Positions 31,251-64,000 of a DNA stretch of 64,000 nt are shown here, piece after piece (position 1 is the stretch's first letter; every line of letters begins with the position of its first letter). The DNA is taken from positions 70,958 through 134,957 of the forward strand of contig JAJDCD010000012.1 of NCBI GenBank assembly GCA_029261035.1. Direction: 5' to 3'. The position numbers and the translations under genes are program-made. The notes beneath the pieces were generated by a model. The model saw only the letters and a list, made by a program, of their open reading frames with translations. It searched no databases and was not told the DNA's origin. This DNA is from Candidatus Omnitrophota bacterium (GTDB lineage: Bacteria > Omnitrophota > Omnitrophia > Omnitrophales > JACROU01).

Positions 31251-34200
31251 TTAGGCAGCAATCTGGATTAAATACTGTGCCATTGCATTCTTGAAGAGGT
31301 GTTTTGTAAACTCTTCTAATCGCACTCTATATCGGCCAGATTCTTTGGAGAAATAACCTTCTCGGTTTTTTCCCTGATCTAAAAGAAGGGATAAAGATGC
31401 CATCAAAGCAAAAGGAGATCGCTCAAGAACAATGTGATTATCTGATCGATCTGCACTGCCTGAGTTCGAATAGTTAATGATTGGATAAAACGTTCTATTC
31501 TTCCCGAGACTATTTTTAAGTTGCTTCAACAGGGATTCAAGGTCTCTATCAACAAATTTAAATTGCTGATTATTTACATAATCCGCTTGAAGCACAACTT
31601 TCTCATCTTTAATAATTATAATTTGGCTATTAGCTAAACTTAAGAACTGTTGAACACCCACCACTTCTTCGACTTCAGAATTCCGAAGCAAATCATTCCA
31701 AACAGAAGCTTTTATAATAAGATATTTTTCTTCTTCTAACCTTAAAGCATCAAAAAATAAATTCTCTACCCTCGAACCTTTCTCTCCCAAACTGGATGCA
31801 CTTAAAGCCTCTTCAGAAAATACTGCTGTTAAGCCAGCGCCTAACAGTTGAAACACATCTTTAAGAGGGTCTTCATCACCAACGTTCTCTAATTTCCCCT
31901 TGATACTTTCTACATCAATCCCTTTAATCACTTCCTGAACTCGTTTAAGCACTTTTGATATTGAGAATTCCTCTTCTAAATCCATGTTTAAAATAGTATT
32001 TTCCAGAATTTTCAATTCGATCTTTTGTTTTAAACTCTCACCTTCATCTAACTGTTCTGATAACATTCTAATCTCATCTATAAATTGCTCTAATCCTTTC
32101 ACCTGTATTCTTTGATTGAGATAATCGTACAAATCTTCCATCGAAGAAGCCACTGTCGGAATACCTCCAAGTAAAATCGAAATTAAGTTGGTTTTCTGAT
32201 CCAAATCACTGATGACTACATTTTTAGGTTCTCTTTCATATAGGTTAGGGTTACCAAGAAAAGTTGCTATTTTTTCAAATATCTCAGCTAATTCATGGGA
32301 AGATTTAATGTTCTTAATGGAAATATCATAATAAGAAAGGATACGTTCACTGTGCAGATTACCTGTAAGAACTTCTTCTAATTTAACTCTAATATATTTA
32401 CTTACCCTATCGGATTCCTCTACTTCCACATATTCTTCTACAGCCTCATGCAATAACAGCTGTTCTTTTTCTTCTGCCGTTAAAAGCTCAAACTGAGTTT
32501 TTGTAATTAAGAGAGATCGGTATAAAGGATTGAAGGAAGTTCTGAGGGCAAGGATAGGGATTTGTTTTACAGGAGTTTGAGCTTCTTCGGAGTCGTAAAT
32601 ATCTAAAACAAAATAATTCTTCTCTCCATCATAATGCACCACTCTCTTCTTTCCATCATTCAAGTATATTCTTTCCTCAAAAGCTTCTTCAATCACATGC
32701 CAATGAGTCTTCTTTCCAATTGAAAATATTTGAGCTAATGGACTCATTGATAAAACAGTTTTTTCAATACGCCTACTCACTTTTGGCAGAACAACTGAAA
32801 CTATCGCATCTTTAATATCTTCACGAATAACTTCGGGTGCTTTTGCATACACAGAAACATTTAGGTTTCCAAAGATAGCAAACACAAAATACTCTAAAAT
32901 ATATTCTAACTTTTCACGCTCTAAATCGCTCAATTTTAACTTAGTTGTTTTTAACAGCTCCACAATATCCTCTGTTGAACGCAATCCTTTATTAGGATCT
33001 ACAAGCATTTTTTCGTCAGCAATTATTTTTAATGCCCTGTAAACCAAAGAAGTACGTTCTAGATAATTTAAAACAAAACGAATTTTATCTTCCGGTCGAA
33101 CAAAGTAAGTACCTCTAATCTCGGACTGATGTTTATCCAATGATTGCTTAAAATCCTCAAAAGTAATTTGATCTGGAACTAGCTCCGCTCTTTCTCTAAT
33201 TATAGGAAGGGCTCTGTATTTAGCCTTAACCATAATCTCCATGGTAGCTTTTTCACCCATAACTCTTTTACCTTTATCATTGATATAAGCTAGCGGATAA
33301 ACATGTTCTCGGTTTTTCTTTCCTACTGAAATCCCATTAAACTGAAGGTAACTATAATCATTACCATAAAACTCGCCCTGATCCCCAATCTTTAAAATCT
33401 CATTTACATGAACCGAAACTCCCGTTTCTCTTTCTATGTGTTCAACAAAATCTTCCAGAGAAGAAGCTTTGTCTGTTCCCAGAGGCATAAAATCAATAGA
33501 CCTTCTCCCACTAATCATAGCTGTAAAGGGAATTCCGTCCGTTACCAATGCAGCCTGTAATCGGGTTACATAAGGTAGCGCATTCCTTATATCCCGGAAA
33601 TGTAATCGAAAGTAATTCTTCCTTTTTTGTAAAAATGCATGGTTTTTTTCTGTCAGTTCTTTTTCTGATTTTGCTTGTTTAAGAACAATTCCCATTGTCT
33701 TCAAAACCCCTTTAACGTCCTGTTCGCCTCTTCTAAAACTATAATTCCCAGGCCACAATCTTTTTGGCTGACGAACTAAATTTCCGAAGCCATCCAATAT
33801 TTCTGCTCCATTATCTGCATAAACAATCAGATACCTAGCATCCTCATCATCCATCCCAGAAGTTCTCAATGCCTCGTACACCTTTTTCATTTCGGGCTTA
33901 CTCGCCAATCGAGCCGTTGCGAAAGAAACAAAAACCTTACCCTTTAGCAATTTAACTAAAAGTTCTATCGCTTTTTTTGACAATTTGCCATGCTCAAGCG
34001 TTAAAGTACCGTCAATATCCAGCATCGTTGCAACAAACTGGGTTTTTATTAATTCCTCAAATTCTTTTTTTTCTAACAGCTCAACCAAATCATAAATCAC
34101 TTTAGCTTTAGGGTATACTTTTCTCTCTTTATACAACCCTTTAAAATGAGGTTTTCCATCGAGAGATTTCCTTGCCGGTTCTATATGCATACGATAGAGA

Positions 34201-37200
34201 CTCCCTGCTCCATCATTGATAATATCCGCCTTATACAAAGCAAAAGCCATTCTAAAAAGGTCTCTTCGATTCAACTTGTCTTTCAATTCCTCCGAAGGCG
34301 TAAAAGCGTTATCTACTAAATCTTGAGGGGTTCTAGGTTTTGGGTTAGCGTGATGCTTAAACATGTCTCCAAATTGATCTGCAATTAAAATAGCCTCAAC
34401 AATTTTAATTTCATCGTTTGAAAACCCTAAGGAAGGTAGAAACTGATAAGCAAACTCAATTGATTTTTCTTCGTGAAGTAAATGTTGTTCATCATAAAGA
34501 GCTCTCTCAGTCTTTTTATCTGCTGTTATCGTGGCTTTCCCAACATCATGCATCAAAGCTGCCGCTCGAATTAAAGCTCTTGGATTCATACCTGGTATAT
34601 TAATGCTATTAAAACCATCTGTATCCACACCCTTAAGTACATTTTGAGTGTGTTGCTGAATATCAAGAGCCAATGGACGACCCCGACCATCCTTACCTCT
34701 TCTTCCCGCGGGTCTTTCCATCAAAGATAATAAAGGGGGTGGTAAATATTTAAAAATCTTTTTAATATTCAATCTAAAAGTAACATCATCGGTCTCTAAC
34801 ATTTTCTTTACTTGACGACTGCCTTCAACATCCGATAACTGGTAGATTTCTTTCACATAAGCTCGTGCTTCTTTCAGAGTTGTAATAATATTATTTGCTA
34901 CAGTTTCATCGCTTTTACTTTCAAAACCTGCAGAATAAACAATTTGCTTAATTTGCCTATCTGTTAATTTAGCTATTTTTTTCGCCATTCTTTTTTGAGC
35001 GGCTCTACCTAACTCCGTTTGAATAAATCCAAAAAACTCTCTCTCATAATCGGTAATTGCTACAGAGGCATAGGTCCCCGGCTTTGTTATATCGGTAGGG
35101 TCACCCATAAAATCTTTGATGGCTTGAATATTAAAACCCTCATTCTTTAAAGTCCCACGAGCCCGATAGTGAAAACTGCCTCCAAAGTCCCAAACGACAG
35201 GATTTCCATTAAGTCTTACAGAATTATCTATTCCGTTATTTTGTTTTGCTCTACCATCATAGTTCAGAGTAATCATATCAAACAAAAAACGTTCTAACAC
35301 TTCATTGCTTTTTCTCAGTTGCTCATCTGAACCTTCTGGAAACTTTTCTATAAGTCCCGGAATTCTTTTACTAGCAATGGCATATTCCGTACTCCCCGTT
35401 CCTGGGTGTGTCATTTTAATAATACGCACATCTGTGGGCACATTTACCCCTAACTCTTTTGCCATTCTCCAAGCAACATACTCTGTTCTTAATTGGTTAA
35501 TTTCAGGGTAAAATTTAACGTAGTACTCATCTCCATTCGATTTTCTTTTCATAAATCGAGCTTTGTTAGACCCAAAAGGTCCCCAAGGAGTAGTCCCCGT
35601 TAAATCCTCACTCAGCTCATGCCCCTGAATCAACATGTACATCCATGAAGTTATTTTAATTTTTCCGTCTTCATTGAAATAATCTGCCAATTTAGAAAGG
35701 AAGGTTGTTTCAGCTATATCCGAATTAGGAGTTTCTCTAAAAAAATGGCTTATTTCATCTTTTTTCGCTTGATCTAAAGCCACGCCATTCAATTCACCAC
35801 GACGAATAATTCGATTAAGAGCATCAACAAAAGAGTGATTATCTTCATTGCTATGCACACCTACCAGAATACCCATTCCATTTTCAAATGGATTTTGATT
35901 TCTGATTACCTCCTCATAAATCTCACTTTCATCAATTAATCGAAAATGATCCAGCTCAGCAGGAGACATTTTTCTTTCTCCCACCCCAAACCTACCACTG
36001 GATTTATCAAAAAAATCACTCGCTCTCAGAGATGTAATCACCTCTCCTCTATCATCCATTAACTGTTCTTTAATTGCTTTGAGTTGTTGAAAATGTTCTT
36101 GTTTTATAAATACAACCCCTAATTGACTTACAGGAATAAGTCCTTTAAAAGGGATGACAGGTAGCTTTCTATGCCCAAAATCAATACCTCTTGTAATTTT
36201 GGCTTCATTGTAATATTCGCTTGGAATCAAAAATAGAGCTCCGTTATAATCAATAAATTGCTGACTACCCGCCCCATAACCACCGCCACCTTCTCGGATC
36301 ACATAATCATATTCATTTGCTATATAACGGACATCTGATTTCCCCTGATTTCTTGCTTTACGATCCGTAATAGGAGGCTGTAAACCTCGAGTAATTCCAT
36401 CTAAAAAAGCTTCTGTTCCTGTAACAGAACGAATAAGCCATTGCCCTTTAGGAAAAACATCTTCTTCGTTCAACGTTCCTTCAGGGGCAGCTCCATGATA
36501 AAGCCTTCCTGTATTCAAACGTCTATAGATAGCCCTGTATTTTGTTTTTGGGTAGGAAAACAAGAGCTCTAAAATATTATTTCGATACTGTTTCCCAAAA
36601 ACAACTTCGATTAAAGATCTTTTGATTCTTCTCTTAGCTTTACTTCTATCATCTTCAATAACAGCTTCCAAAACTTTTTCTTTTTTTAATTGTTTCATAA
36701 TCCATTCAGCAACTTCAAATGCTTTTTCACTATCGGATATATTCTGAGAAGCTCTATAGCGAATTCCATCTATAGCACTTAATTTGATTTGCTCAGCAAC
36801 GTAACGATACAAGCTTTTATCAAAAACGTCATTAATCACTTTCATTACTTCGACCGTTGAAGAAATTTTTCCTAGTGCCTCTAAAGCTTTTTGACGCAAA
36901 TTCGCAGATATTTTTTCATCCTTAAAGATCTCAATAATAAACTTTTCTGAGCTTTCATTCGCCAAACGGCCATTCACTTCAATAAGAACACTCAACAGTT
37001 CCTCATTAATCGAAGACTCTATAAGAGCTTTACGCAATAAATTCCTCAAAGTTCTATCAGCCCCTGAAGGCCTTGCATTCGCTACTAAATTCAATATTTC
37101 TTTCTTTAGATCTACATTTGTTAATTGCTCATACATGTTAAGCAAAGTCAGCGCCCAATCGGGATGATTAACATGAACAATCCCTTGGACTAATTCAAAG

Positions 37201-48148: not shown

Positions 48149-48175
48149 ACTCTCGCATAAGAATTCCGCTTCACG

Positions 48176-48203
48176 AGAAAAAGAGAGCTTATACTCTTTT
48201 TCT
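48176..48203 (-). terminator. Weak terminator-like hairpin at the end of the 1,495-aa gene
   Basis: On the minus strand AGAAAAAGAG pairs with CTCTTTTTCT across an 8-base loop (plus-strand arms 48176-48185 and 48194-48203). The stem is A/T-rich and overlaps the stop codon, with the T-run inside the stem. It may terminate weakly or bidirectionally. Confidence 0.3.
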
Positions 48204-51200: not shown

Positions 51201-52690
51201 GCAAATTGCTGTACAGCCTCAGCGTGATACCCTCCCGTAACTAAAATAGCTTGTCGGGCACCTTTATCTTTCATATACCTTTCAGCATGATTCAACATAA
51301 ACACTTCTCGTTCTTCAGCTCCAAGATAAAAATTCATTGCCGCGTCAAACACGTTATTAAAGAATGAAATATCTTCAAACACTTGCCTTTTTACTCTTTT
51401 TTCACTATTTAGTTTTTCTAATTGATTTACTATTTCAGAAGGTTTAAATCTCAACAAAGCTCCTGCATCTTCATTTAACCATTGATATTCATCGCGTGTT
51501 AATTGAAGGGTAAATATTTTTTCTAATAACCGAACGTTTTCCAATAAGATAACTATCTGCTCTTCCATTTCATTCAAAACTAAAGACTCTAAAATGAGTC
51601 CTTTTATTTTTTGGATTTCCTGAAAAAATGGAGCTGATTCCATCTCCGATTTCAAGATTTCCATTTGAATCAACTTCTTTAATAGAGGAAAAGACTGAAA
51701 TGAAAAATCCTTAGGCAGCTCTTTGAATAATCGTTCAAAAAAAGGTCTAAGCACAGCTAACTGACTTTGAGACAATGTGCCCTGAGAAGACGCTTTCAAA
51801 GAAAGCAAAGTCGCATTTAACTCATCACCTAAGTTCTTACTTAACTTAAACGATGAAGTTTCTTTCAAAAAGCCTTGAATCTCATTATTTAGCTTAGACG
51901 CATTCCACTGACTCTCAAGTTGTTTCATGCGAAAAAACCGAATAAGCATGGGCCATTCTTTTTGAAATTCCGCTTTTTCTAAATCAATATTTAAACGTTC
52001 GAGTGCAACTTCCTTCAAAAGTGAAAGTTTATTGATAGAACTCAAATCAGCTTCATTTTTAGAGGACATAAGATCTGAAAACTGCTTTAAATCCGTATTA
52101 AGATAATGAGGGATAAAAGCTTCTAATTGACGTTCTAATTTTTTAATGAAAGCACCTGTCGAAACAGACTGTCTCAAGACAAACTGAAAATCTTGGCGGT
52201 TTTTCCTGTAGTTCAAAGAATCTTCAATGCCGTAGGCGTTTAACTCACCCTTAGAAACTTGATCTAAACGATCTAACAAAAAAAGCTCCGGTCCTGTCAA
52301 CTCTGCTTCTTTCATTAATTTGTCTGCAAATTTCAAATTCTTTTTAGGACTTTCAGGAAAGAAGTTCAAGATTTGAGGGTCCAACTTTTCAATCCCCCCC
52401 TCTAACAACATTAAATCCACTCCTTTTACATCCGTTAAATACTCAATCATCGATTGGATATTTTTTTCAGCTTCATAATGTCCATGGGCGCTTTGTATAT
52501 GATAAAGAGTAGGTGCCTCTGGAATACTAAAAATAGATTCCACAATTGCTGTATCTTGAGGTAAGCCTAATAATTGATTTGTAGGTGCGCTCTTCAATTC
52601 AGGACGAACAACTTGTGTCCAAGCCAAAGAAGTAGAAATAAAATTTAATAGAATGAATATGCTAATAATTTTTAGTGTTAATTTGTACAT
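48203..52690 (-). CDS. Large exported protein with TIKI/EreA-like domain and beta-propeller
   Basis: Function unknown; about 1,495 aa. A signal peptide (MYKLTLKIISIFILLNFIST, to about residue 25) precedes a TIKI/EreA/ChaN-like domain (about 60-510). Its motifs HIQSAHGHYEAEKN (H69), LLEGG (E97), AYGIED (154-156) and LVTGGYHAEAV match the first domain of the 5,516-aa neighbour in order and spacing. A Gly/Asn/Ser linker (GNGNGSNGNGSS, about 587) leads to a beta-propeller (about 630-1045) of FS.DG.../VY repeats, as in FSPNEKYIAYTTH. A helical Arg/Pro-rich segment and a C-terminal domain ending RRIMIAA follow. The ATG at 52690 has AGGAG 10 bases upstream; an in-frame TTG at 52744 lies inside the likely -35 box and is rejected. 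Confidence 0.85.
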   Translation of the reverse strand: MYKLTLKIISIFILLNFISTSLAWTQVVRPELKSAPTNQLLGLPQDTAIVESIFSIPEAPTLYHIQSAHGHYEAEKNIQSMIEYLTDVKGVDLMLLEGGIEKLDPQILNFFPESPKKNLKFADKLMKEAELTGPELFLLDRLDQVSKGELNAYGIEDSLNYRKNRQDFQFVLRQSVSTGAFIKKLERQLEAFIPHYLNTDLKQFSDLMSSKNEADLSSINKLSLLKEVALERLNIDLEKAEFQKEWPMLIRFFRMKQLESQWNASKLNNEIQGFLKETSSFKLSKNLGDELNATLLSLKASSQGTLSQSQLAVLRPFFERLFKELPKDFSFQSFPLLKKLIQMEILKSEMESAPFFQEIQKIKGLILESLVLNEMEEQIVILLENVRLLEKIFTLQLTRDEYQWLNEDAGALLRFKPSEIVNQLEKLNSEKRVKRQVFEDISFFNNVFDAAMNFYLGAEEREVFMLNHAERYMKDKGARQAILVTGGYHAEAVQQFAKDKKMSYVRLTPQISGELKSEGYLESMLESRKSPVVVSQISDVLKLQSQRALILQGKSPDYFRGRLESALTQSLGSGVSLAASLGGNGNGSNGNGSSWFDAFTDSQSVDAALEVLKRSSLGSSKPTEKVSFSKDGSIAFVSYRDNTAVAFDVLSRKQLPINFGSQVQLGEVSPSGNLIVVKSFTSTDVYHVKTGVKVVRGMSSSAVGFKFSPNEKYIAYTTHVRTGGDSSKQSADLYNVDSGNKVVLEGVSLTAGGLEFSDSGNLLIVYQDRASDQAYQLENDIATNMSSELGSDVLSVNFLGDTDMAFVRYRNNESKVVDLTFGFEREISFDLHARRAMISADGKYLVVHYTYFDENREAKNYEKIYDFSKGEDISSQFGFDFSGVYRAVFSLKGEYLFVGRRDFASGQVQYFFEVYRLIDKVKVRTFPIHLTGVPVFSANGQYLSAGNAKTTDSNYGSEVLIDLRSGKITTLKGVDGYSAKIEFSEDSSLLYFKKDRVGVLETKTGQNISGIVGGAMSSFAILQNRFVVASSSGAVDVKILDLQALKTNPIFKKAIRSFGNDFSDAFNQLIQLVASEKIKTRDQLSAFLIAFPSLKNLNYTDKTKAFNRILKAVAERRLTVPTNRDELQDFVDYAVGINDLELETAADARAAKPRVSRARREAPPRVVKKGGFFSRFVSGSGSSLGSSLVELESNPLSARISDEDLLAARRVTVDLMDGVLGANTKVAERLYAELFPSQSPALVTQNLVNVLENTDSGIESLGFDVVKLKSFFSSLVDKSFGVVAIPLSGKTSLDDLIGEMESLKLILKNQPNKVIVFVSSEAVYGDVREMLYSTYDERVFLFESTEGIAGFLPNLYLGQFNNLGESNAKLAKLFSSKSRELAKKVLGKLPTMWLPKSSLVVAPKQNFEDNMLLGQTSRQFHQKNYPGISSKDLFSAHLLYGLLLSSQGTSLLQDRIPEELKIEMRGNQYFIQFNSQFIDQIMDLIQATRRIMIAA

Positions 52691-52999
52691 ATATATAAGT
52701 CTCCTAAACGACACTATTTTCCTTCTAAAGCAAGTATCTGTCAAACCTTAACATCAAATTGTAAAACAACCTTTTATTAAGTCTTAACCCTTTGACATGA
52801 GCTTTTAAAGCTACCCTATGGGTGGGGAAAATGCAAATGAGGTTTTGGGTGAAAGTTACTTGCCTGTACAGAGTGACTGTCACTGGCCTGTGCTTGCACA
52901 GAGCTCAGTGACTGTCACCCCAACTAGCTTGGTGATAGTTAACGCGTTGTGATAGTGACAGTCACCATGCTCTGCGGGGTCGCAGGCTGGTGACAGTCA
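52691..52999. other. 309-base spacer upstream of the 1,495-aa gene, promoter plus repeats
   Basis: No gene. Next to the 1,495-aa start it is AT-rich with a TTGACA box; further up (52873-53000) it is filled with four GTGACWGTCAC palindromes directly after the previous giant gene's stop codon. Confidence 0.7.
52716..52744 (-). promoter_or_regulatory. Possible promoter of the 1,495-aa gene
   Basis: Minus strand: a perfect -35 TTGACA (52744-52739), a 17-base spacer and a weak -10 GAAAAT (52721-52716). It leaves a short leader of about 20 bases to the ATG at 52690, with AGGAG inside it. The weak -10 keeps confidence low. Confidence 0.35.
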
Positions 53000-53000
53000 C
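52873..53000. repeat. Four GTGACWGTCAC palindromes between giant genes
   Basis: Copies lie at 52873-52883 (GTGACTGTCAC), 52908-52918 (GTGACTGTCAC), 52955-52965 (GTGACAGTCAC) and 52990-53000 (GTGACAGTCAC). The first two and last two are in opposite central orientation, so they can pair over about 120 bases. The last copy ends on the stop codon of the upstream giant gene. CTGTGC/GCACAG inverted repeats lie between the first two copies. Confidence 0.85.
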
Positions 53001-56000
53001 TATGCGGCTCTTTTAGCTTTTGATTTGGCCTTGAATTCTGCCAAGAATTGATTGGCCAGTTTAACGACATGACTGAAGTTCATCACGATTTGATTTGTTT
53101 CAGAGTTGTAAATGCCTGCTAGCTCCCCAGCTGTCAAAGCACCCACTCCATTTCTGGATAAGTAACGGCCTGTTTCGAATAAGAATTTGTTAATCAATTG
53201 TTTTTGTTCATTACTTAAACGACTATCCACACCTTTTGTTTCTTGATAGAGAACAGAAATAACTCCTTCTTGACCATCCGCTCTACTTACATGAACTACA
53301 TTCTCTTCTCTAGCACCTTTCTTTACAAGATTTTTAATGGTATCTGAAACAGCCTGACTTGTAATATTAACAACAGCAAATCCGGTACGTCCTACCGCTG
53401 TGGTTAATAACGGATGGTTTTTAAAATTCTCTTTTAATTGAGCTGCTAAAGCAGGATCTTCCACATGAATAAAATGCGCTATTCCCGAATCTACTGTCAA
53501 TGGATCGATCAAGCGTTTAAAGGATGCTTCACTATCCACCTGCTGGCTATTCGTCACAAATCCTTGATCTTTAATATTCGGAGCTGGTGAAGAAGCTGCT
53601 AACGCACTTACAGCTATTGCATTTTCAACCAATTTCATGGATACCCAATCGGTTGCACCACTATAGTGAGTTCTTAGATACTTACTTGCAGCGTTTTGTA
53701 ATGTTAATGGTAATGTAGAGACAAAAGGAGCTACACCTTCGTTGAGATAATCTTGTGCGGTGTCATTCATTCCTCGAAGAGCCATACGAATAACTGGATT
53801 ATCTAAATCTTGATTCTCAATAGCCTGTGCTAAACGTTGATTGAAAATTTCTAAGAATTGGGCCAGATCGGTATTACCTAATTTTTGAGCTGCCAATTGA
53901 GTTCGCTGGTAAGCGATCAACTCATCTGTAGCTGCTCTCAAAACTAAGTTATCAATACTGGATAAGGCCTCAATGTTTTCTAAATGAGTTAATTCATGAA
54001 TTAAATTGATAGCTAATGCATTTAGGGCTTCTTGATCTCCTGTAGCTGCTCGATCCACAATCAATTGATTCAAGACAATGGTTCTGTTTTCTAAATCAGC
54101 ATAGGCTGCTACCCCCGTTAGTGCTGCATCAAAGTTTTCAGAACGAATACTTCGAACAATGGATGGGTCAATATAAGCTCCAGCATTTATTCTAAGTGCT
54201 TGTTCCAAAGCTTTTGCGATAACTCCCTTATATTCTTGCATTTCAGCCGGCAACACGGAGTCTAGTAGTGATTTCATCTGATTTTCCGTTTGGAAAGCCC
54301 CCAAAATGGTTTGCCCTGGAATCGTAGCGGCACCCAAAGATCTAGCTGACACTTGAGTCATAAAACTCGTTACATCCGTCATTGGAAGCGTAAGAGATTT
54401 AACTTGATCATTCACCTCGGTTATGACGGTCAGTTCTTCTGCTCTTTCTGATTCTTCTTGTCCTTCAAGGGCACTGATAACTTCAGCAAAGGTTTCCCCG
54501 ATTGCCTCTGGGTGTTCTCGTTTCAGAGCATCAAACTCATCCGCACTTAAAGTTGGCAATGCTTTATAAGGTGCCGATAGCTCTGTTGAAATAGCCTGTA
54601 CTTTCTTTCCGCCCAAGACTTCTTTTGCTTGCTCATTAATCTGAGCTTCTAAAGATGCTATCTGACTCTTAAATCCTTTAAGAACTGGCTCAACCTTCAA
54701 AGCTTGAGTTGGATAATCATTAACAAAACCTTGAAGTTCTTCAATATAATCTTTGCCTAATTGAATCGCAGTTAAACTATCACTACTTTTCATAGACTCT
54801 TTTACTTCTGCACCTTTTTTCAATATATTTCTTGCCGCTATAGCATCTGTCGAAAATTCCATGCGACGAGGAGCTCCTTTATAATTCACAACAATAGAAA
54901 CGACAGCTTCGTCTCCCTGGGCTAAAGCTTCCGTTAAAATTGTGTTTAATTCGGGAATACGTTTAACAGCTTCATCCACACCTAAATCTAATGATGGGAT
55001 TGCACTTACAGATTCTGAGCTCGTAGACGCAATCACCGACTCCACAGATTCAACCTTTTTATCTCCCAAAGAAGCTAAAACTTCAATCTCTGGAATTTTA
55101 ATTTGAGCTATCTGTATGTTTTTAGATTGTATCTCTGCTTTAGCAGCTGCTAACGTTCTGCCAGAAAATTGACCGTCTACAGTAAATCGATTTTTAACCT
55201 TTGCTTGTATCGATGAAAAACCATATTGATGGAAAAGGTTCTGTAGAATTCCTCTGTCACGGTCCGTCACAAAAGTTTTTGCGAAAAACTGTTCACCCTT
55301 TGTCATTAATTCAGGATCTAAATCAATATCTTTCTGAGAGTAATAAGCTAAAATTTCTTCCACCACTTGCTCTTCAGTGTATCCACTATTCAATAAATCT
55401 TTAGAAGCTTCTTCGTAACCATCCAATGTCTTAATCACATCTATAATTGCTTCTCTTTCTAAATCAGATAGAGAGAAGAAAAGAGCATGATTTGTTTCAT
55501 GAAGCACATTTTTACGCGCTTGTTTAAATTCCTTCAACAAACCTTTGTTGGCACTAATGTCTTTACCTAAGGCAGGAGAAAAAGAAATAGTCCCTAACCC
55601 GTTGGTTTCAGCAAATAATTTCATAACTAATTGAGAACCTTCATAAATATTTGTCTTTAATTGGGTTACAGCTTTACTTTCAGCTTCTTCATAAGTCATC
55701 TTAGGATTTAATGAAAGTATTTCTTTCGCTAACTTAGCAATAAAAGCTTCTATTTGAGGATTAGACAAATCCAATTCCAATTCTTCAGCAGAGTCTTTTG
55801 TTGCAATTTCATAATACTTAGCTCTCTCTTTTGGATTCACAAAGAAACCAAGAGCATTTTCAGCATTAAATTCCCACTGATTATTAATATAAAGCTGTGT
55901 ATAAACGAGCTGCAAGAAGTCCTCTCTATTCGCTTCTTTATCTACGACAACAATATTTTCTAAGAAAGCATCTATAGGATCTTGAGGATACTCACTCGAT

Positions 56001-59000
56001 AAAATAAATTTAATTTTATCCGCTCCTTCTTTATCCACTTTTCGAGCCAAGCTAGCCATTTCTTCAGCTCGAATAACTTTCATAACAGGTTTTCCATCTT
56101 TTCCTTTTGTAGCCAAATAAACATCTTTACCTTCTCTAGCTTGCCTCAACCAACTATTCACATTACCAATCAACCAATTTCTAATTTCATTCCCTAATTC
56201 TTCTAAGTCTAAAGAGATCTCTGTGATTTCCCCTAACTTGTTGCTGGCTTCCATAAGCACAAGTGCTTGATAAGGATTTTCAGCCCCTTGACTCACAAGC
56301 TTTTCTGCCAACGTTTCCCCTCCCAAAATCTCACCTTGTGCATAAGAAGAAACAATCCCTTCCAAGACATCTTCTAATTTTTGTTGCTTAGAGGTCTCTT
56401 GCTCCACTCTCTTATCATGTTGAGAACGCATTTCATTATGCTCAACAACTAATTGAGTTGCGTGCTGTAACACCATCTCTCTTAAAGAGGTCTTTCCTTT
56501 TCTATTTGCTAATTGCTTTAATTGAATCTTCCAATCAACCCCTTCTTGACCTTGGCCTAGCTGAGTTCGAGCCACTTGAATAAAATCACTAAGGCGATGC
56601 GTTGAAATATCATTTTCAGCCGCAAATGCTCTTGCTTCATCCATCGTTCTATTAAAAGCATCTCTTCCAACAGATTCAATAACTTGGGCGTCCTCTCTAA
56701 TCGTTTGCAAAACTTCTATTTTTCGTTGCTTCAATGTTTCTGCTGACGCTCTTTGAGACTCCGGTAATTTTACATTTTCTTCATCCATTACTTCTAAAGC
56801 GGCATATACTTCAATCATTTTTCTATCCGTTGGATCCACGACTCTTTCTTTACCTATTTGTACTCTTAAATTATCTGAATGAGGTAATGCCTCACCTTTC
56901 TCAATTCTTTCCAACAAGAGATCCAAATCACGCGTTTCTACTGGGTCCATTCTTCGAACCAACTGTTCATAAATCACTTCCCTTGGAGCTAACCAAGAAT
57001 CATCCACACTATCAACAAAGTGCCATGCGTAATACTCTCCATCCACCAGTTGATTAATGCGTTTTCTAATACTGGTTTCATCAGAGGTACGTCCAAACTC
57101 ATCTCTATTAACTAACTGAGCCGCAAAAATACGGGCAATATTTTCAACTAAATCTTTCTTTCCAGGTCCAAAACGAACCATATGTCCTATCGTTTCTTTC
57201 CAGTCCACAACTCCAGGTTTTCCTAACCCTTTATTCAGAGCTAACAATTTCTTCTTAAGATCTGCACGGTAAGATGCTGTTAGACCAAAACCGTCCAACA
57301 AACGATCCCGATGTTTCAATAGCAAAGAATCTCTTAATACTTTTATTACATCGCTGCTTTCAATTCCGTTTTCACTTAAAAGCTTTACTATTTCTTTATT
57401 TGCCAATGGAGACTTAAGGAAATTACTTGGATCTGTTTTGCTCATTCCTTTTTCTGTACTGATAAGAAAATCATGCAACATTCGTTCTGAAACCTTGCTA
57501 TTCTCAGACAATTGTATTGCTGCCTTCGATTTAGGGTCTCCAGACTCTGCTTCCTTTAACTCAATTTTATGAGCGGTATCAAACACAACTAAATCCTGCC
57601 CTGGACCCGAGTGAGAAGTGATTTCCTCAGCAACTTCAGAAGCAAAATTTCTTTTAATATCTGCCAAAACACGTGGGTCTCTACCTGAAGTTCTATATTG
57701 AGAAACCATTTTTTCTAAGTAATGGATAAAGAAGCGAACTTCTCTATTTCTACCTGAAGCGCCAATCGCACTGGAGTCACGACCTTCATCTCCACGATTT
57801 CCAACAAGAGCTAATGAGAAATTAGAAGCAATACCATAATCTTTAGCTGCACTGAAGAGTCCATTTGCTCCTTGATTACTGGAAACCAATACCTTTAATT
57901 GCTGAAGAGCCTCTTCTTCACGACCCGCCTCTGTAGGAATATCTTTATATGGATCAAATAAGCTAGCTCCTAATCCCTTTTGAGCATAAGTTCTAGCTGC
58001 AATCGCTAATCTACGAATTGTTTCTCTATTCTGTTCTGTAATAGACTCTGTTCCTTCTATAATTTGTTTTAAATGAGAACCATGCTTTACGTTCTCGTCT
58101 AATTGAATCGCTCTTGAATTAGCTTCAGAACCATACTGATCAACCACACCCTGATACAAGTCATAAACCACCTTATAATCTCCTGTTAACTGATTAGGAT
58201 CAAAATAAAGTTTATCTGCTTGATAAACACCACTTTCCGCTTCTGCTTTCTTTTTATCTTTAGCTGTCAATTGTGACTGAAGCTTAGGTGCTATCACTTG
58301 AATCTGTTTTAGTTGTTTTTTCAAGAAAGCCTGCATTGACGCGTCTTGCTTAATCGCATTTTCAAAATCTTGCCTTGCCAAGACAAAATCACTACTGGAT
58401 ACCGCATCATCTTCTTTAAGTGAAAGAGCACGGTCAAAAAAGATTTGCCCTCGAGCTGCATAAGCTTCTGCAAGTAGCTTTGCGCCTAATTCGGACTGTA
58501 TTTCTTTTCGATCCAAGAAATTAATCGCATCGGTATAAGCATTCAAAGCAGTTTCAGCCAAAGTATTCGCTTCTGCTTCTTTTCCACTCTCTCTTAATAC
58601 TCTAATTTCTTTGTCTGTATTTTGAGCTATTTGTAGAGTTCTGATTGTACCAATTAAAGCTTTTTGATTAGGTTGTGTATTCGTAATCGTCGCAATATTC
58701 AAGATACCCTCTAAAATAGAGTCGAAACTCGAGGTATCTGAAACAGCAAAATTTCTTCGGCTCACAAGATCTTGTAGTGGCGTTATATCCTTTTGAATGA
58801 GCACATTCAAAATATCTTCCACGCTAAGTTCATGTTCTGCTTTAACTAATGAAAGAGCCGCATTCAACATCTGAGCTTGATTAAAGAAATCCCTTCTCAT
58901 TTTGGCAACTTCTATGTTTCGAGCTTCATCCTCTACAGAAATCAAAGTATCTAAAGAACTTAAAAGAGCTCTTAATTCTTCCTGTCTCTCAGCGTCAGAC

Positions 59001-62000
59001 TCCTTCTTAATACTTGAATTAAGATGATAAATCAAAGCACTAACTACACCCTCGCCATCTCTATATCCATGAGTCTGAGATTGTTTAAGAAGCTTTCCAA
59101 GGCCTAAAGCCGTGTCCTTATTTAAAGTGGCTATAGACAGCAATTGTTTAATAGACAAGTCTTTAGCTGTCGCTGCTCCCATAGCGACAATAGCACCCTC
59201 TTTAGATCCGTCCTTTAACCCTTTACTGATATCCACTATTTGCTCTTTTGAGAAATTAGGATTCACCAAAGGAAGAATGTCTTCTATCTGAAGTTTAAAA
59301 TCTTTTTGTAATTGTTCTAAGAAATTAACTGTTAGATAATCCTGAGGTGGATAATTTTCCATCAAGTAAGTATCTATATACTGATCAATCATGTGATCAT
59401 TCCAACCTTGACGCTTTAACTGTTTTTTATATTCTTCTCTAATTCTCAACTCAACTTCATATTGCCTAGCTAGCTCGTTATCAAATCCATTGAGTCGTTC
59501 TAAAAATTCTGCTTCTGCCGTCTTTTTATTATTGAGCTGTCTTCTTGCTTGGATAAATTTAGGAAGTTCAAAAGCAACAGCTTCTCCTTCCTTAATCTGC
59601 GTCGAACTTTCGTCCAAAACACTCAATGTAATCGATTCTACACCTGTTTTGTTGCCGTCATATCCAGAGTTCACTGCGGAAGGAGTCACTTTAACTTCAT
59701 ACTCCACACCTGCAATTGTAACCTTAGTATCTTTACGGGGTTCTAGAACAACCCCTTTATAACTGTAATGACCTGTATCTGAATTGAAATCAACTTCAAT
59801 AGTTGGTTGTTTAGGGTCAGGAGTTTTAATCTTCTTTGTCTCACCGGCAACAACCTTCGTTGTACTTTGAATCGTACTTGAAAACTTAATTCCACCTGTC
59901 TTAGTATCAGGAGAAGTTGTAATGCGATACATTCGGTAGACTTTTCCTCCTACTGTTTTATATACACCCCCATCTTCTATATCATGATCCCCTTTCTCTT
60001 CCTGCCAATAGTCCACATTGCTCGTCTGATCCACTGGAACCGTAACGGACTTCCCTAAGTCATCCACGATAATGTAATTACCTTTTCCATCTGGAGTTCC
60101 CATAACCGTAGGGGCTTTTGTAGAATCTTTAAGGTCTTTTGTTGCTGCAATAAGCTGCATTAAACTGTCTTTTAATTCCTTCGATTTAGAGGAATCTTCT
60201 GCTAATAAATATTGCTGATAGGCTTTTGAAAGAATTTTCTTTTGAGCTCCATCAGAGGTTGTTTCGATTCTTTTTAATATTTGTTGATTAAAAGCCTTAT
60301 CTCCTCCCAAAAAGCCGTTAGCAAAACTTCGGTCTCCAATAACTACTTGTTTAAAGCTAATATCCGCCCCTCTAATTTTCTCGATCAACCTTTCTCCATA
60401 GCTCAAATCATCAACTTGATCAATATCACTTGGACGTTTCTTTAATTCAGAAATTCCTGGTAATAGATTAACCAAAGGAAGAACAGCAATGACTTTACCC
60501 AGACCTACTAGGACTCCACTAACTACAGAAGAAGCCACAAAAGCAACGGGCTGTATTGCACCCACATTCAAAATGCTTCGGACAGAAACTGGAGCCTGAG
60601 AAGTTGTAAATTGTTGGAACGCTTGAGCGCGTAAAGCTTCTGGGTTGTTCTTATAGCCTTGAGGGTCGGATTTTCTTACAGATTGAAGTTGTCGCACCAA
60701 ATCCCCCAATTTGTTTACCTTATATCCAGAAAGAGCTTTTCGATTCGTCTCAGAACTCAATAATGAAACAAGATCTCGATGATCTTCAATATTTAATTGT
60801 TCCGAACTAACAATTGAGATTTTTTCTACTAACTTTTGAGCTAAATCTGCATCATCCAGGTTTGGGGATTCTCTATTTACATCTTTAAGGAGTGCGCTTA
60901 TTTTAACTTTTTCAGGATTCGTAAAGAAACCTTTAATATTATGAACCGTATTCTGATAGAGACGTTTCGCTTTTAGTTTCATCAAGTCTCGAGCTCGTAC
61001 TCGACGTTCTTGATCCAACTGATCTCTATTCCATACATCAAACCCTTCTAAAAGATTACGTTGAATCCATCTTCTGATTTTTGTTTTTTCTGGGGTTCGA
61101 CTCATACGAAGCTTATCTTCTAGCCGATCGATGTCTTTATTCAAATTAGCTTGTTGATACTGAAACTTTTCTTGGGATTCATGGGCGTCAACAATACCAT
61201 CAATCACTTTCCTCTGTTGTGGATATAATCCCATTTCACGAGTTGGTGTACTCACTTTCATCATTTCTCTCTGAATGATTTTAGCTAGCTCTGCTCTAGA
61301 GTTTTTAGCAGATAGGATTCTAGCCCACTCATTTGGCTCTACAGCCTCCGAAGGAACAAATTTCTTGAATTCACTAAAGAAAGAATTTAACTGAACAAGC
61401 TTATCTAAAGTTTTCTCATTTGCATCTTCCGCATTAATAAATCCCATTCCTACTAATGCAAAAGTGAATGTAACGATGTCAGAATCACTCGCACCTACAG
61501 GCGGCACTGGAGGAGCAACCCCTTGTCTAGAAGAAATCAACTTTCCAAGAGCCTGTCTTAAAGCTTTTTGATTCGCAATTTCTTCTTCTGACAGAGTAAC
61601 ACCTTCTGCTGCTGTTAACTGTCCTTTAAGGTGAAGAGCCAATTCCACCATTTTCATTCCTGTTTGGGTCAACAGACCCTCTTGAGTATTATTGATCATC
61701 CCTTGACTTAACAATTCTTTCTGAAGCGTTTTAACCGTTTTTGTATCTAACTGATCACTATTAAAATCAGACAGCGCTTTTCTTTCCATGACTTTAGCCC
61801 CAACGCCTCCTGCCTGCGTTGCTACATCTGGAAGCTGATCCTCTCGAACCCTTTGATTAGCTAAACGCAAAACTTCTGAAACAGTGCTCGCTTCCGTTGT
61901 TCCACGTTCTTGCCCAACCAAACCTTCTCTAAACTGAATATCTCCTGTCTTCAACTTCTCTACTTTCTGACCTGCTTTAAGACCCAACTCTTTATAATCA

Positions 62001-64000
62001 TTCACTACCGTATGAACAATCGCAACATCATCCAAAGCTTCAAGTACTCCCGCTTCTCTCAATGTTTGCGCCATCAAATCAATGTTTGGATTTTTTCGAA
62101 TAATTGTCTCTAAAATCTCTAATTGTTTTTGTTCTTGATACGTTAAGTCAGAAGCCCCTCTTCGAGCTAAAAGCTTAAACTCTTCCACAGATAGATTTGT
62201 ACTAAGACGTCTGAGAATATTTTGAATTTGAGGCTCCGCTAGTTTAGAGTTCACAGCACTATCTTTATGCGTAAACTCGGATGCAGTTTCTACAGCGTAA
62301 CTCTTGCCTGCTTGCTCAATATAATAAGTACTATTTTGATCATTAAAATTCAGAGCTGTCTCTTCAATAGCTTTTAGCTCTGCCGTGATCGTCTTTTGTA
62401 TAGCATCTGGCAATTGAGTAAAATCTTCTCTTTGAACAATACGCTTCAATTCTTCTATAACTTTGTTTCTAGCACTGAGAAGGTTTTCTAGGCCACTTTG
62501 GGTTCCCCCTAATGCAATATCTTTTTCCCCTACCCGTGAGGAATCGTAATCGCTTTGATATTGAGAAACAACATTCAAATGTTCTTGAAGTTCCGATTCA
62601 GATAATGCGGAGTCACTTTTTAAGCTTTGTTTTAAATTTTCAAGAAAAGTTTTATGCTTATCATCAATGTCATTCACCAACATGGTTAACAAGAAATTGC
62701 TGGCTTGACGATCTTGATTTGTTAATAAAATATCAGCCAACTCTTCCTTCGTTACACGATCCGTAGCTTTAGGATCATCAGAACGGTTTGCATCAACATA
62801 AACAATGTTTAGTTGATGAAAAAGAGGGGTTACTGCTGCAGAAAGTTCAAAAGTAAAGAGAGCTGTACGTTCTTCACCTGCTTCTTGCTGAGCCTTATCT
62901 TTCAATAACTCTTGAGTCACAAATTCCATATCAATACTGCCTTCTTGGAACATTTGTCTAAATTCTGGGCTGCGCGCATAAATAAAGTCACTTCCTCCAC
63001 GATGCTCTCCTCCAGGAAGCCCTTTCTTTTCTTTACCGTAAAGATGATCCTTGCTGATTCTTACACCACGGTCTCGTTTCATTGATTGAATCGCATCAAA
63101 AGCAGTGGTACCCCCATCATAAAGGTCATAAATATCTGCCTCACCATTCATAATAACGTCAACACCGCGGGTAGCCCCTTTATTAAAGTAAAAAGCGACT
63201 CTTTCATTAGGACCCACATTTGCAGGGTCTGCTAAAAATGCTTTTACATCAAGTTCACCCTCTGCTTCGCCCGCAAATTTAATTTGATTATCACTCAATA
63301 GGACATTTCCATTAGCATCTCTCATCACATTACCGTCAACATCTCTTACAACACGAACAATTCTCCATGTGGTTTCTTGATCTTTAAGCACAAGAACATC
63401 CACATTTTCGTCTCTGTCCCAATTACCTGCTGCATCTTCTTTACGTAACAAACGGTCAATCAAGCCACCTGATTGGGCATCAGATCGAGCTAAATCGACA
63501 TCCCCTAGTAAGTCTCTCTCATCTCCGTTGGTTAAAATGTTCTTTACAACAATATGCCTAGAAGCTCCCTCACTGCGTTTTGTCTTAATCGCCTTTAAAA
63601 TTCCTTGATTATCACTTACCGTATCAATACGAGAATCATCAATATTTACAAAGTGATCGGTTCCTTTAGAGGCATCCATCACCTTAATTCCATAAGACGC
63701 TAGTAATGGTAAAACAGCATGGTCCATCGTTCCTGAAAAACCGCTAATATCTGATCCGTTGTTATAGAATAAATTCAATGTTGCGTTACGAGAAGAACGG
63801 CTTGATTCTGAAGAAACAGTGATTGTTTTCATTAATTCTTTTCTCTGACTAGGGTCTCTTAACTTTTCACTGATTGTCTCATCTTTTTTCTCAGTACCAT
63901 GAGCTCGTTTCCATACAAGCTGTGTATGGACATTCAATAAAGGATCGGACTGATTCAAACTTGGCGACACAGCACCTCCTGAAAAGACCTTAATTGAAGA
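53000..64000 (-). CDS. Giant protein (at least 3,656 aa) with two HExxH zincin-like motifs, 5' end probably outside the window
   Basis: Function unknown. The frame is open from the right edge to the stop at 53000. A GTG at 63970 with GGAGG just upstream could start it, but no signal peptide follows and the first residues read as mid-domain sequence. Numbering from 63970: 60-420 resembles the C-terminal half of an SF2/SecA-like helicase (FSGTMDHAV..., KGATRGVDV near 268, AIQSMKRDRG near 295). There is one hydrophobic segment near 1150, TPR-like helices about 1780-1900, and HETNH near 2823 with a later Glu in VVEEILAYY. HELTH near 3323 has TDELIAYQ 21 residues on. The rest is charged, helical and rich in Glu, Lys and Gln. 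It ends AKSKAKRAA. Domain assignments are motif-based. Confidence 0.82.
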   Translation of the reverse strand, partial: SSIKVFSGGAVSPSLNQSDPLLNVHTQLVWKRAHGTEKKDETISEKLRDPSQRKELMKTITVSSESSRSSRNATLNLFYNNGSDISGFSGTMDHAVLPLLASYGIKVMDASKGTDHFVNIDDSRIDTVSDNQGILKAIKTKRSEGASRHIVVKNILTNGDERDLLGDVDLARSDAQSGGLIDRLLRKEDAAGNWDRDENVDVLVLKDQETTWRIVRVVRDVDGNVMRDANGNVLLSDNQIKFAGEAEGELDVKAFLADPANVGPNERVAFYFNKGATRGVDVIMNGEADIYDLYDGGTTAFDAIQSMKRDRGVRISKDHLYGKEKKGLPGGEHRGGSDFIYARSPEFRQMFQEGSIDMEFVTQELLKDKAQQEAGEERTALFTFELSAAVTPLFHQLNIVYVDANRSDDPKATDRVTKEELADILLTNQDRQASNFLLTMLVNDIDDKHKTFLENLKQSLKSDSALSESELQEHLNVVSQYQSDYDSSRVGEKDIALGGTQSGLENLLSARNKVIEELKRIVQREDFTQLPDAIQKTITAELKAIEETALNFNDQNSTYYIEQAGKSYAVETASEFTHKDSAVNSKLAEPQIQNILRRLSTNLSVEEFKLLARRGASDLTYQEQKQLEILETIIRKNPNIDLMAQTLREAGVLEALDDVAIVHTVVNDYKELGLKAGQKVEKLKTGDIQFREGLVGQERGTTEASTVSEVLRLANQRVREDQLPDVATQAGGVGAKVMERKALSDFNSDQLDTKTVKTLQKELLSQGMINNTQEGLLTQTGMKMVELALHLKGQLTAAEGVTLSEEEIANQKALRQALGKLISSRQGVAPPVPPVGASDSDIVTFTFALVGMGFINAEDANEKTLDKLVQLNSFFSEFKKFVPSEAVEPNEWARILSAKNSRAELAKIIQREMMKVSTPTREMGLYPQQRKVIDGIVDAHESQEKFQYQQANLNKDIDRLEDKLRMSRTPEKTKIRRWIQRNLLEGFDVWNRDQLDQERRVRARDLMKLKAKRLYQNTVHNIKGFFTNPEKVKISALLKDVNRESPNLDDADLAQKLVEKISIVSSEQLNIEDHRDLVSLLSSETNRKALSGYKVNKLGDLVRQLQSVRKSDPQGYKNNPEALRAQAFQQFTTSQAPVSVRSILNVGAIQPVAFVASSVVSGVLVGLGKVIAVLPLVNLLPGISELKKRPSDIDQVDDLSYGERLIEKIRGADISFKQVVIGDRSFANGFLGGDKAFNQQILKRIETTSDGAQKKILSKAYQQYLLAEDSSKSKELKDSLMQLIAATKDLKDSTKAPTVMGTPDGKGNYIIVDDLGKSVTVPVDQTSNVDYWQEEKGDHDIEDGGVYKTVGGKVYRMYRITTSPDTKTGGIKFSSTIQSTTKVVAGETKKIKTPDPKQPTIEVDFNSDTGHYSYKGVVLEPRKDTKVTIAGVEYEVKVTPSAVNSGYDGNKTGVESITLSVLDESSTQIKEGEAVAFELPKFIQARRQLNNKKTAEAEFLERLNGFDNELARQYEVELRIREEYKKQLKRQGWNDHMIDQYIDTYLMENYPPQDYLTVNFLEQLQKDFKLQIEDILPLVNPNFSKEQIVDISKGLKDGSKEGAIVAMGAATAKDLSIKQLLSIATLNKDTALGLGKLLKQSQTHGYRDGEGVVSALIYHLNSSIKKESDAERQEELRALLSSLDTLISVEDEARNIEVAKMRRDFFNQAQMLNAALSLVKAEHELSVEDILNVLIQKDITPLQDLVSRRNFAVSDTSSFDSILEGILNIATITNTQPNQKALIGTIRTLQIAQNTDKEIRVLRESGKEAEANTLAETALNAYTDAINFLDRKEIQSELGAKLLAEAYAARGQIFFDRALSLKEDDAVSSSDFVLARQDFENAIKQDASMQAFLKKQLKQIQVIAPKLQSQLTAKDKKKAEAESGVYQADKLYFDPNQLTGDYKVVYDLYQGVVDQYGSEANSRAIQLDENVKHGSHLKQIIEGTESITEQNRETIRRLAIAARTYAQKGLGASLFDPYKDIPTEAGREEEALQQLKVLVSSNQGANGLFSAAKDYGIASNFSLALVGNRGDEGRDSSAIGASGRNREVRFFIHYLEKMVSQYRTSGRDPRVLADIKRNFASEVAEEITSHSGPGQDLVVFDTAHKIELKEAESGDPKSKAAIQLSENSKVSERMLHDFLISTEKGMSKTDPSNFLKSPLANKEIVKLLSENGIESSDVIKVLRDSLLLKHRDRLLDGFGLTASYRADLKKKLLALNKGLGKPGVVDWKETIGHMVRFGPGKKDLVENIARIFAAQLVNRDEFGRTSDETSIRKRINQLVDGEYYAWHFVDSVDDSWLAPREVIYEQLVRRMDPVETRDLDLLLERIEKGEALPHSDNLRVQIGKERVVDPTDRKMIEVYAALEVMDEENVKLPESQRASAETLKQRKIEVLQTIREDAQVIESVGRDAFNRTMDEARAFAAENDISTHRLSDFIQVARTQLGQGQEGVDWKIQLKQLANRKGKTSLREMVLQHATQLVVEHNEMRSQHDKRVEQETSKQQKLEDVLEGIVSSYAQGEILGGETLAEKLVSQGAENPYQALVLMEASNKLGEITEISLDLEELGNEIRNWLIGNVNSWLRQAREGKDVYLATKGKDGKPVMKVIRAEEMASLARKVDKEGADKIKFILSSEYPQDPIDAFLENIVVVDKEANREDFLQLVYTQLYINNQWEFNAENALGFFVNPKERAKYYEIATKDSAEELELDLSNPQIEAFIAKLAKEILSLNPKMTYEEAESKAVTQLKTNIYEGSQLVMKLFAETNGLGTISFSPALGKDISANKGLLKEFKQARKNVLHETNHALFFSLSDLEREAIIDVIKTLDGYEEASKDLLNSGYTEEQVVEEILAYYSQKDIDLDPELMTKGEQFFAKTFVTDRDRGILQNLFHQYGFSSIQAKVKNRFTVDGQFSGRTLAAAKAEIQSKNIQIAQIKIPEIEVLASLGDKKVESVESVIASTSSESVSAIPSLDLGVDEAVKRIPELNTILTEALAQGDEAVVSIVVNYKGAPRRMEFSTDAIAARNILKKGAEVKESMKSSDSLTAIQLGKDYIEELQGFVNDYPTQALKVEPVLKGFKSQIASLEAQINEQAKEVLGGKKVQAISTELSAPYKALPTLSADEFDALKREHPEAIGETFAEVISALEGQEESERAEELTVITEVNDQVKSLTLPMTDVTSFMTQVSARSLGAATIPGQTILGAFQTENQMKSLLDSVLPAEMQEYKGVIAKALEQALRINAGAYIDPSIVRSIRSENFDAALTGVAAYADLENRTIVLNQLIVDRAATGDQEALNALAINLIHELTHLENIEALSSIDNLVLRAATDELIAYQRTQLAAQKLGNTDLAQFLEIFNQRLAQAIENQDLDNPVIRMALRGMNDTAQDYLNEGVAPFVSTLPLTLQNAASKYLRTHYSGATDWVSMKLVENAIAVSALAASSPAPNIKDQGFVTNSQQVDSEASFKRLIDPLTVDSGIAHFIHVEDPALAAQLKENFKNHPLLTTAVGRTGFAVVNITSQAVSDTIKNLVKKGAREENVVHVSRADGQEGVISVLYQETKGVDSRLSNEQKQLINKFLFETGRYLSRNGVGALTAGELAGIYNSETNQIVMNFSHVVKLANQFLAEFKAKSKAKRAA

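What the first reader, a model, noticed from the sequence alone, without database searches (positions are those of the whole stretch)
31251..64000. Three giant genes in tandem, sharing terminal modules: candidate undescribed surface or secreted system
Seen: three consecutive minus-strand genes of at least 3,656, about 1,495 and 5,516 codons fill half the window with almost no other coding sequence. At least two start with signal peptides. The second and third share an N-terminal domain, and all three appear to share a C-terminal module. Known: giant proteins are reported from Omnitrophota and are suspected in cell-cell interaction or predation. Inference: the three form one modular system (metal-dependent hydrolase-like heads, propeller or membrane middles, common tail), possibly assembled at the envelope, since an envelope-glycan operon follows directly.
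Basis: partly seen in the sequence, partly recalled or inferred. Interest (0 to 1): 0.9.

Follow-up and report, generated by a model that had tools for sequence, protein, structure and literature searches.

The report
Exported multi-enzyme giant polyprotein family
This uncultured Omnitrophota bacterium devotes about a sixth of its genome to at least 44 huge, apparently exported proteins that string together complete enzymes, almost all cysteines removed, between repeated short linker motifs that look like cutting sites, which would make them a protein-delivery arsenal that has not been described.

Summary
The three giant genes are real, but they are not a trio. The third is 23,704 codons long (71 kb; the window holds only its last 15%). 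They are three of at least 44 such genes in this 2.7-Mb genome: 156,405 aa, 17% of the genome. Shared plan: signal peptide; TIKI-superfamily hydrolase/protease head (43 of 44 genes; His/Glu/Arg/His invariant); unrelated bodies; C-terminus ending -A (41/42), usually -AA (33). Bodies are almost free of cysteine (0.024% against 1.15%), and the few left often sit in enzyme motifs (isocitrate lyase, GAPDH, UDP-glucose dehydrogenase, Macro). One body carries isocitrate lyase, malate synthase, PEPCK and a glutamate-dehydrogenase domain; others carry kinases, PGM/UGPase, helix-turn-helix arrays. A motif, [SVAIT]x[AG]xSLG, occurs 165 times (3 expected), never inside a head or named domain, and can bracket an enzyme to within 10 residues. 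Another family of the phylum uses RSE[LVM]R instead. Synonymous third positions vary freely, so selection acts on the protein. Best reading: exported polyproteins cut into separate enzymes and delivered to a neighbouring cell, working like MARTX but unrelated in build. Architecture is shown; cleavage, delivery and target are inferred. The link to the glycan operon is not supported.

The parts
31251..47801 (-). Giant gene 1 (P0001), 5,516 aa: signal peptide, TIKI-like head, middle with about 14 TM-like segments, HEAT repeats, HD and HAD domains, -QIAA tail
46233..47669 (-). TIKI-superfamily head of giant 1
   Evidence: one of 43 aligned heads in A1
36798..37013 (-). HEAT repeats (PF13646, E 2.9e-9) in giant 1
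34329..34580 (-). HD phosphohydrolase domain in giant 1, HD motif (MHDVGK) present
   Evidence: PF01966 E 2.6e-5
33306..34025 (-). HAD hydrolase domain in giant 1, DxDGT motif present
   Evidence: PF08282 E 9.4e-7
31785..31805 (-). LSASSLG, near match to the linker motif, before the tail of giant 1
31251..31313 (-). C-terminal helix and -AA end of giant 1
48203..52744 (-). Giant gene 2 (P0002), 1,513 aa from TTG or 1,495 aa from ATG: signal peptide, TIKI-like head, beta-propeller, C-terminal module, -MIAA tail
51080..52570 (-). TIKI-superfamily head of giant 2; AlphaFold2 pLDDT 92.7, pTM 0.88
50945..50965 (-). Linker motif SLAASLG between head and propeller of giant 2
49133..49156 (-). GSGSSLGS, relaxed linker motif between propeller and C-terminal module of giant 2
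48203..49135 (-). C-terminal module of giant 2, borderline member of the 18-tail family; ends ...RRIMIAA
   Evidence: AF2 model poor
53000..64000 (-). Last 3,667 codons of giant gene 3 (P0003), a 23,704-codon frame that continues to contig C4:195071; RHS and MORN repeats lie upstream of the window
54332..54352 (-). Linker motif VSARSLG in giant 3, the only strict match in its whole length
55487..55501 (-). HETNH zincin-like motif in giant 3
53984..53998 (-). HELTH zincin-like motif in giant 3
53000..53062 (-). C-terminal helix and -AA end of giant 3

Best explanation
The genes encode exported multi-enzyme polyproteins. Each carries a Sec-type signal peptide, in 43 of 44 cases a TIKI-superfamily hydrolase head, a string of complete enzyme or regulatory modules, and a C-terminal helix ending -AA. 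The modules are separated by a lineage-specific linker motif ([SVAIT]x[AG]xSLG here, RSE[LVM]R in another family) that most likely is a protease site. After export, cleavage at these sites, perhaps by the TIKI head itself in cis or in trans, would release individual enzymes. Because the cargo (isocitrate lyase, malate synthase, PEPCK, PGM/UGPase, GAPDH, protein kinases, DNA-binding arrays, Macro domain) needs cytosolic metabolites, nucleotides or DNA, the most likely place of action is the cytoplasm of a prey or partner cell. Shown: the shared plan, cysteine purge, retained catalytic cysteines, motif statistics and placement. Inferred: cleavage, identity of the protease, role of the -AA tail as a docking, export or processing signal, and delivery to another cell.
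For: 44 giants, 156,405 aa, 17.4% of the genome. Hydrophobic N-termini; 42/44 pass a crude hydropathy cut, though 23 of 73 control ORFs also do. Heads: H29, E57, Y415, R421, H449 invariant in 43/43; H-to-E spacing 28 in 41/43, identical to the TIKI endopeptidase VvRRSP (His3902-Glu3930) and Bcr135 (His85-Glu113) (PMC6254334). Cys 37 in 153,545 aa; bodies keep ICL KKCGH, GAPDH SCTTN, UGDH GGSCFPKD, Macro LGGC and a PEP-synthase-like pair. Giant PEPCK is full-length against the cell's own PEPCK (33% identity), which has 13 Cys where the giant copy has none. ICL-bearing giants in two relatives also keep the KKCGH Cys. Motif 165 vs 3.2 expected, 1 in 31,854 aa of ordinary ORFs; 0 inside heads (20.1 expected) and 0 inside 17 named domains (6.5 expected); PEPCK bracketed at -10/+2 aa, three kinases start 4-8 aa after it. 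A second family uses RSE[LVM]R (119 sites, 1 in heads vs 10.5 expected), bracketing a receiver domain at 1702/1847. Third codon positions near background entropy. -AA/-SA tails recur in other genomes, 25/37 vs 10/344 controls. A related predator shows open cytoplasmic contact and transfer of molecules into prey (PMC13153191).
Against: No cleavage, secretion or delivery is demonstrated. P0001 has no strict motif and P0003 one in 23.7 kaa, so the motif does not segment every giant. P0003 lacks the head. Some bodies have multi-TM regions (P0001) that suit a membrane protein better. No secretion machine was identified. The motif could be a chaperone or assembly epitope, or an inherited linker spread with shuffled modules; serine codon-family bias shows the copies share descent. 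The domain-placement test covers 17 domains in 6 giants, and most other sites lie next to sequence with no recognised domain. Several of the 17 domains have no strict site close by. Pfam does not recognise the head above its thresholds.
Confidence: 0.55

Rival explanations
1. Uncleaved surface or periplasmic giants. The SLG and RSELR motifs are flexible linkers or assembly/chaperone epitopes that came along with module shuffling, and the proteins act as adhesins or as a cell coat, as proposed for Velamenicoccus.
For: Multi-TM segments in P0001 and some others; RHS and MORN repeats in P0003; WD40-like propellers; published coat and adhesin proposals (PMC10066038); linker copies share descent.
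Against: Cargo enzymes need cytosolic cofactors and keep catalytic cysteines. Linkers drift, yet the amino acids are fixed while third codon positions are near background. A different lineage fixed a different motif at the same kind of position.
Confidence: 0.25
2. The giants act in the bacterium's own envelope or an internal compartment as multi-enzyme assemblies that process scavenged prey cytosol, without delivery into another cell.
For: Central-carbon enzymes grouped in one protein (ICL, malate synthase, PEPCK, GDH domain; PGM with UGPase); predatory relatives in open contact with prey cytoplasm.
Against: Kinases and helix-turn-helix arrays make little sense there; no compartment is known.
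Confidence: 0.12
3. The linker motifs are DNA-level recombination or insertion sites that shuffle modules and have no role at the protein level.
For: Strong polymorphism of bodies; serine and arginine codon-family bias points to copying.
Against: 52 distinct nucleotide 9-mers among 165 SLG sites and 102 distinct 15-mers among 119 RSExR sites; Gly, Ala, Glu and second-Arg codons at or near background. A DNA site would keep third positions.
Confidence: 0.05

Closest known systems
MARTX toxins of Vibrio (multifunctional autoprocessing RTX)
   Same: Giant exported protein carrying several enzyme modules released by site-specific cleavage, including TIKI-family modules (RRSP) (PMC6254334).
   Different: Here a Sec-like signal peptide, no RTX repeat array (4 scattered pattern matches in 156,405 aa), TIKI domain at the N-terminus of nearly every member, dozens of members per genome, metabolic enzymes as cargo. 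Cleavage unproven.
TIKI / TraB-PrgY-GumN / ChaN / erythromycin-esterase superfamily
   Same: Invariant His, Glu and C-terminal GGxH; H-to-E spacing 28 as in VvRRSP and Bcr135; FYxxAxxRD...GGFH aligns with TraB ERNxxM...VGAGH.
   Different: Large helical insertion between the catalytic halves; below Pfam cut-offs; no significant Foldseek hit.
Giant ORFs of Omnitrophota (Seymour 2023; Velamenicoccus 39,678-aa protein)
   Same: Same phylum, huge ORFs, TM helices or extracellular parts, predator setting (PMC10066038).
   Different: Described there as poorly conserved with few annotated domains; the shared head, linker motif, tail, cysteine purge and metabolic cargo are not described in the passages I could read.
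Polyvalent proteins of phages and conjugative elements (PMC5512222)
   Same: Multi-domain proteins with many enzymatic activities deployed in conflicts with another cell (title and abstract only).
   Different: Those belong to phages and plasmids; these are chromosomal, signal-peptide-bearing and far larger.

Membership tests
TIKI superfamily | Catalytic His and Glu on adjacent strands, H-to-E spacing as in VvRRSP/Bcr135 | tested here: met
   H29 and E57 43/43; spacing 28 in 41/43
TIKI superfamily | Second catalytic His (GxxH) and acidic residue of ExH | tested here: met
   GG-x-H 43/43; position 27 is D or E in 39/43
TIKI superfamily | Parallel beta-sheet core fold | tested here: inconclusive
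   High-confidence model with alternating strands and helices, but no Foldseek hit below E 0.001; ChaN, EreC and 2RAD appear among weak hits
TIKI superfamily | Match to curated Pfam models (ChaN PF04187, TraB PF01963) | tested here: not met
   best E 0.0057 and 0.07 in the own heads, none over cut-off; profile-profile link to TraB P=2.7e-4 in raw hhalign output with only 42% probability
TIKI superfamily | Peptidase or esterase activity | not testable with these tools
   needs biochemistry
MARTX toxins | RTX nonapeptide repeat arrays | tested here: not met
   4 pattern matches in 156,405 aa
MARTX toxins | Autoprocessing cysteine protease domain | tested here: inconclusive
   not among the top 25 Pfam families listed per batch; lists were truncated
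MARTX toxins | Multiple effector modules separated by cleaved linkers | tested here: inconclusive
   modules and recurrent inter-module motif shown; cleavage not testable
Omnitrophota giant ORFs | ORF over 20 kb in an Omnitrophota genome | tested here: met
   71 kb (P0003), 48.6 kb and 24.3 kb frames; named relatives nearly all Omnitrophota

The most novel reading that the evidence does not exclude
A bacterial lineage exports dozens of auto- or trans-processed polyproteins that carry whole metabolic pathways (glyoxylate shunt plus gluconeogenesis, UDP-sugar synthesis), kinases and DNA-binding arrays into other cells to rewire their metabolism, with processing sites that co-evolved by lineage and a TIKI protease head as processing enzyme.
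Probability: 0.35. Interest if true: 0.97.

Novelty: categorically new. Interest (0 to 1): 0.9.

Why it matters
Giant Omnitrophota proteins are known but unexplained, described as poorly conserved with few recognisable domains. This analysis gives them a grammar: a common head, recurrent lineage-specific linker motifs, cysteine-free cargo with retained catalytic residues, and a common tail. That makes the long-standing question of what these proteins do directly testable, because the motif predicts where they would be cut and which enzymes would be released. If true, it is a new way for one cell to deliver metabolic pathways into another. The head and the motif also give search handles for finding such proteins in other genomes: 83 of 145 genomes sampled across the phylum carry the head.

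Tried and rejected
The trio as a conserved unit with the glycan operon: rejected, since bodies are not conserved in 58 relatives.

A universal ~280-aa C-terminal domain: a first permissive iteration seemed to unite nearly all tails, but with decoys only 18/41 held. Its AlphaFold model is poor (pLDDT 48.5), so no fold search was run.

Foldseek on the head: no significant hit. The head profile found no PDB chain by sequence.

DNA-level recombination site as origin of the motif: third codon positions vary.

The search for related loci with the 43-row head alignment failed for lack of a conserved stretch; a 5-row subset worked.

For a few other lineages (G018, G022, G009, Tantalella, JAHJGZ and others) no clear recurrent motif emerged from the small samples.

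Full report
What is there. The window (G000:C4:70958-134957) lies in a 2.70-Mb, 94.8%-complete genome. Named relatives of the shared head are nearly all Candidatus Omnitrophota. Three minus-strand frames fill 31251-64000: 5,516 aa, 1,513 aa (1,495 from the internal ATG) and the 3' part of a third. Following the third gene out of the window shows one uninterrupted frame of 23,704 codons, C4:123960-195071. It has a signal peptide, RHS and MORN repeats, no shared head, and two RND pumps, a membrane-fusion protein and a TolC-like gene directly upstream (read from the translations).

A genome-wide family. The first 267 aa of P0001 hit 43 places in the genome, nearly all at the start of frames of about 1,200-16,199 aa. 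With P0003 there are 44 proteins, 156,405 aa, 17.4% of the genome. They begin with a hydrophobic signal-like segment. In a crude test 42 of 44 pass a hydropathy threshold; 23 of 73 control ORFs also pass, so this test alone is weak.

The head. Alignment of 43 heads leaves nine invariant positions, among them H29, E57, Y415, R421 and the GG-x-H at 446-449. Pfam sees only sub-threshold ChaN and TraB matches. hhalign places FYxxAxxRD...GGFH on TraB's ERNxxM...VGAGH, score 37 (31 with a second head alignment); 30 column-shuffled or reversed controls run with the second alignment reached at most 24. The H-to-E spacing is 28 in 41 of 43, the same as His3902-Glu3930 of VvRRSP and His85-Glu113 of Bcr135, TIKI-superfamily enzymes (PMC6254334). 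AlphaFold2 gives pLDDT 92.7, but Foldseek finds nothing significant, with ChaN, EreC and 2RAD only among weak hits. I file the head as a divergent TIKI-superfamily domain with its catalytic residues intact; the activity is unknown. In distant families of the phylum it often occurs once, in several cases in a frame of about 530 aa, and in this order up to about 40 times, which suggests that a stand-alone secreted enzyme was recruited as an N-terminal module.

The tail. 41 of 42 complete giants end in Ala, 33 of them in Ala-Ala; 0 of 89 control ORFs end in Ala-Ala. In other Omnitrophota 25 of 37 end AA or SA against 10 of 344 controls (one protein appears in two loci). Positions -22, -18/-19, -15, -11 and -5 are hydrophobic. 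A homologous module of about 280 aa is secure for 18 of 41 tails only.

The cargo. Pfam scans of the bodies find isocitrate lyase, malate synthase, PEPCK and a glutamate-dehydrogenase-type domain in one 3,587-aa protein; PGM plus a UGPase domain in another; seven of the genome's eight protein-kinase domains in two giants, four of them with intact HRDxKPxN motifs; Macro plus histidine phosphatase; PPDK/PEP-synthase parts; UDP-glucose dehydrogenase; a GAPDH domain; and arrays of helix-turn-helix domains. The giant PEPCK aligns over its whole length with the cell's separate 596-aa PEPCK at 33% identity. The cell's own copy has 13 cysteines, the giant's none; even the P-loop PSACGKTN reads PSASGKTN.

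Cysteine purge with exceptions. After the signal peptides, 37 cysteines remain in 153,545 aa. About sixteen lie in heads or signal regions. Of the rest, eight fall in enzyme motifs: the isocitrate lyase KKCGH (the only cysteine of that protein outside its start region), two in GAPDH SCASCTTN, the UGDH GGSCFPKD, two in the Macro ECRGLGGC, two in a PEP-synthase-like KCGYCG (motif assignments are from my own knowledge); five lie in internal hydrophobic, lipobox-like segments. In two related genomes isocitrate-lyase giants also keep the KKCGH cysteine and few others. Catalysis therefore seems to be under selection while cysteine is otherwise avoided, as expected for proteins that leave the cytoplasm.

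The linker motif. SLG is the most over-represented tripeptide of the giants (271 against 97 expected). In the form [SVAIT]x[AG]xSLG it occurs 165 times, 3.2 expected from shuffles, once in 31,854 aa of ordinary ORFs. It never falls inside a head (20.1 expected) or inside 17 named domains (6.5 expected). It brackets PEPCK at -10 and +2 residues and precedes three kinase domains by 4-8 residues; median spacing is 432 aa. In most giants the last copy lies 183-331 aa before the C-terminus. The same-family relative sampled (G001) shares it. Genomes of family f5 lack it (two stray matches) and instead repeat RSE[LVM]R, 119 sites, one inside a head against 10.5 expected; a response-regulator domain at 1721-1842 sits between sites at 1702 and 1847. 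Most third codon positions are as variable as background, while the Ser codon family (and the first Arg in f5) is biased: the copies share descent but are conserved as protein.

Interpretation. Interdomain, lineage-specific, protein-level-conserved short motifs, with small residues at the positions of an A-x-A type protease site in this family, suggest processing of a polyprotein. The cargo makes sense only in a cytoplasm, and a predatory relative is reported with open cytoplasmic contact to its prey and transfer of molecules (PMC13153191). I therefore favour exported polyproteins cut into enzymes and delivered to another cell, working like MARTX without belonging to it. The steps after export are inference. 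P0001 (no strict motif, multi-TM middle) and P0003 (one motif, no head) are the members that fit least well, and they are two of the three in the window.

The modular giants and hydrolase-like heads are right; the trio as one system beside the glycan operon is not: P0001 and P0002 bodies have almost no relatives in 58 genomes.

Limits. Literature was searched only in open-licence PMC; the preprint on giant genes cited there (West-Roberts 2023, named in PMC12057145) could not be read, so part of this may be described in it. The novelty rating rests on what I could read.

Noticed in passing
L014 (C4:35443-46203, outside window): 3,587-aa exported giant with isocitrate lyase, malate synthase, PEPCK and a glutamate-dehydrogenase domain; its only cysteine beyond the start region is the lyase's catalytic one.
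   Followed up: yes
C24:301197, C24:318475, C24:117634, C18:285805 giants (L047, L048, L045, L033): Internal hydrophobic segments ending in lipobox-like LSAC, LVSC, LTSC, LAGC in mid-protein, each preceded by an SLG tripeptide: possible second, lipoprotein-type signals inside the polyprotein.
   Followed up: partly
L027, C16:405697-407205: 503-aa stand-alone head with signal peptide and no tail: possible trans-acting processing enzyme.
   Followed up: no
C4:195138-205155 (L057): Two RND-type pumps, a membrane-fusion protein and a TolC-like protein directly upstream of the 71-kb gene, the nearest 66 bp from it.
   Followed up: no
C18:285805 (L033) and C21:137122 (L044): Tandem helix-turn-helix arrays (sigma-70 region 4/GerE type; HTH_17 type) inside exported giants.
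   Followed up: partly
window 53984-55501: Two HExxH zincin-like motifs near the C-terminus of giant 3.
   Followed up: no
C16:38495 and C16:280558 giants (L018, L024): Long internal repeats of about 110 aa shared between two giants and with C20:28409.
   Followed up: no
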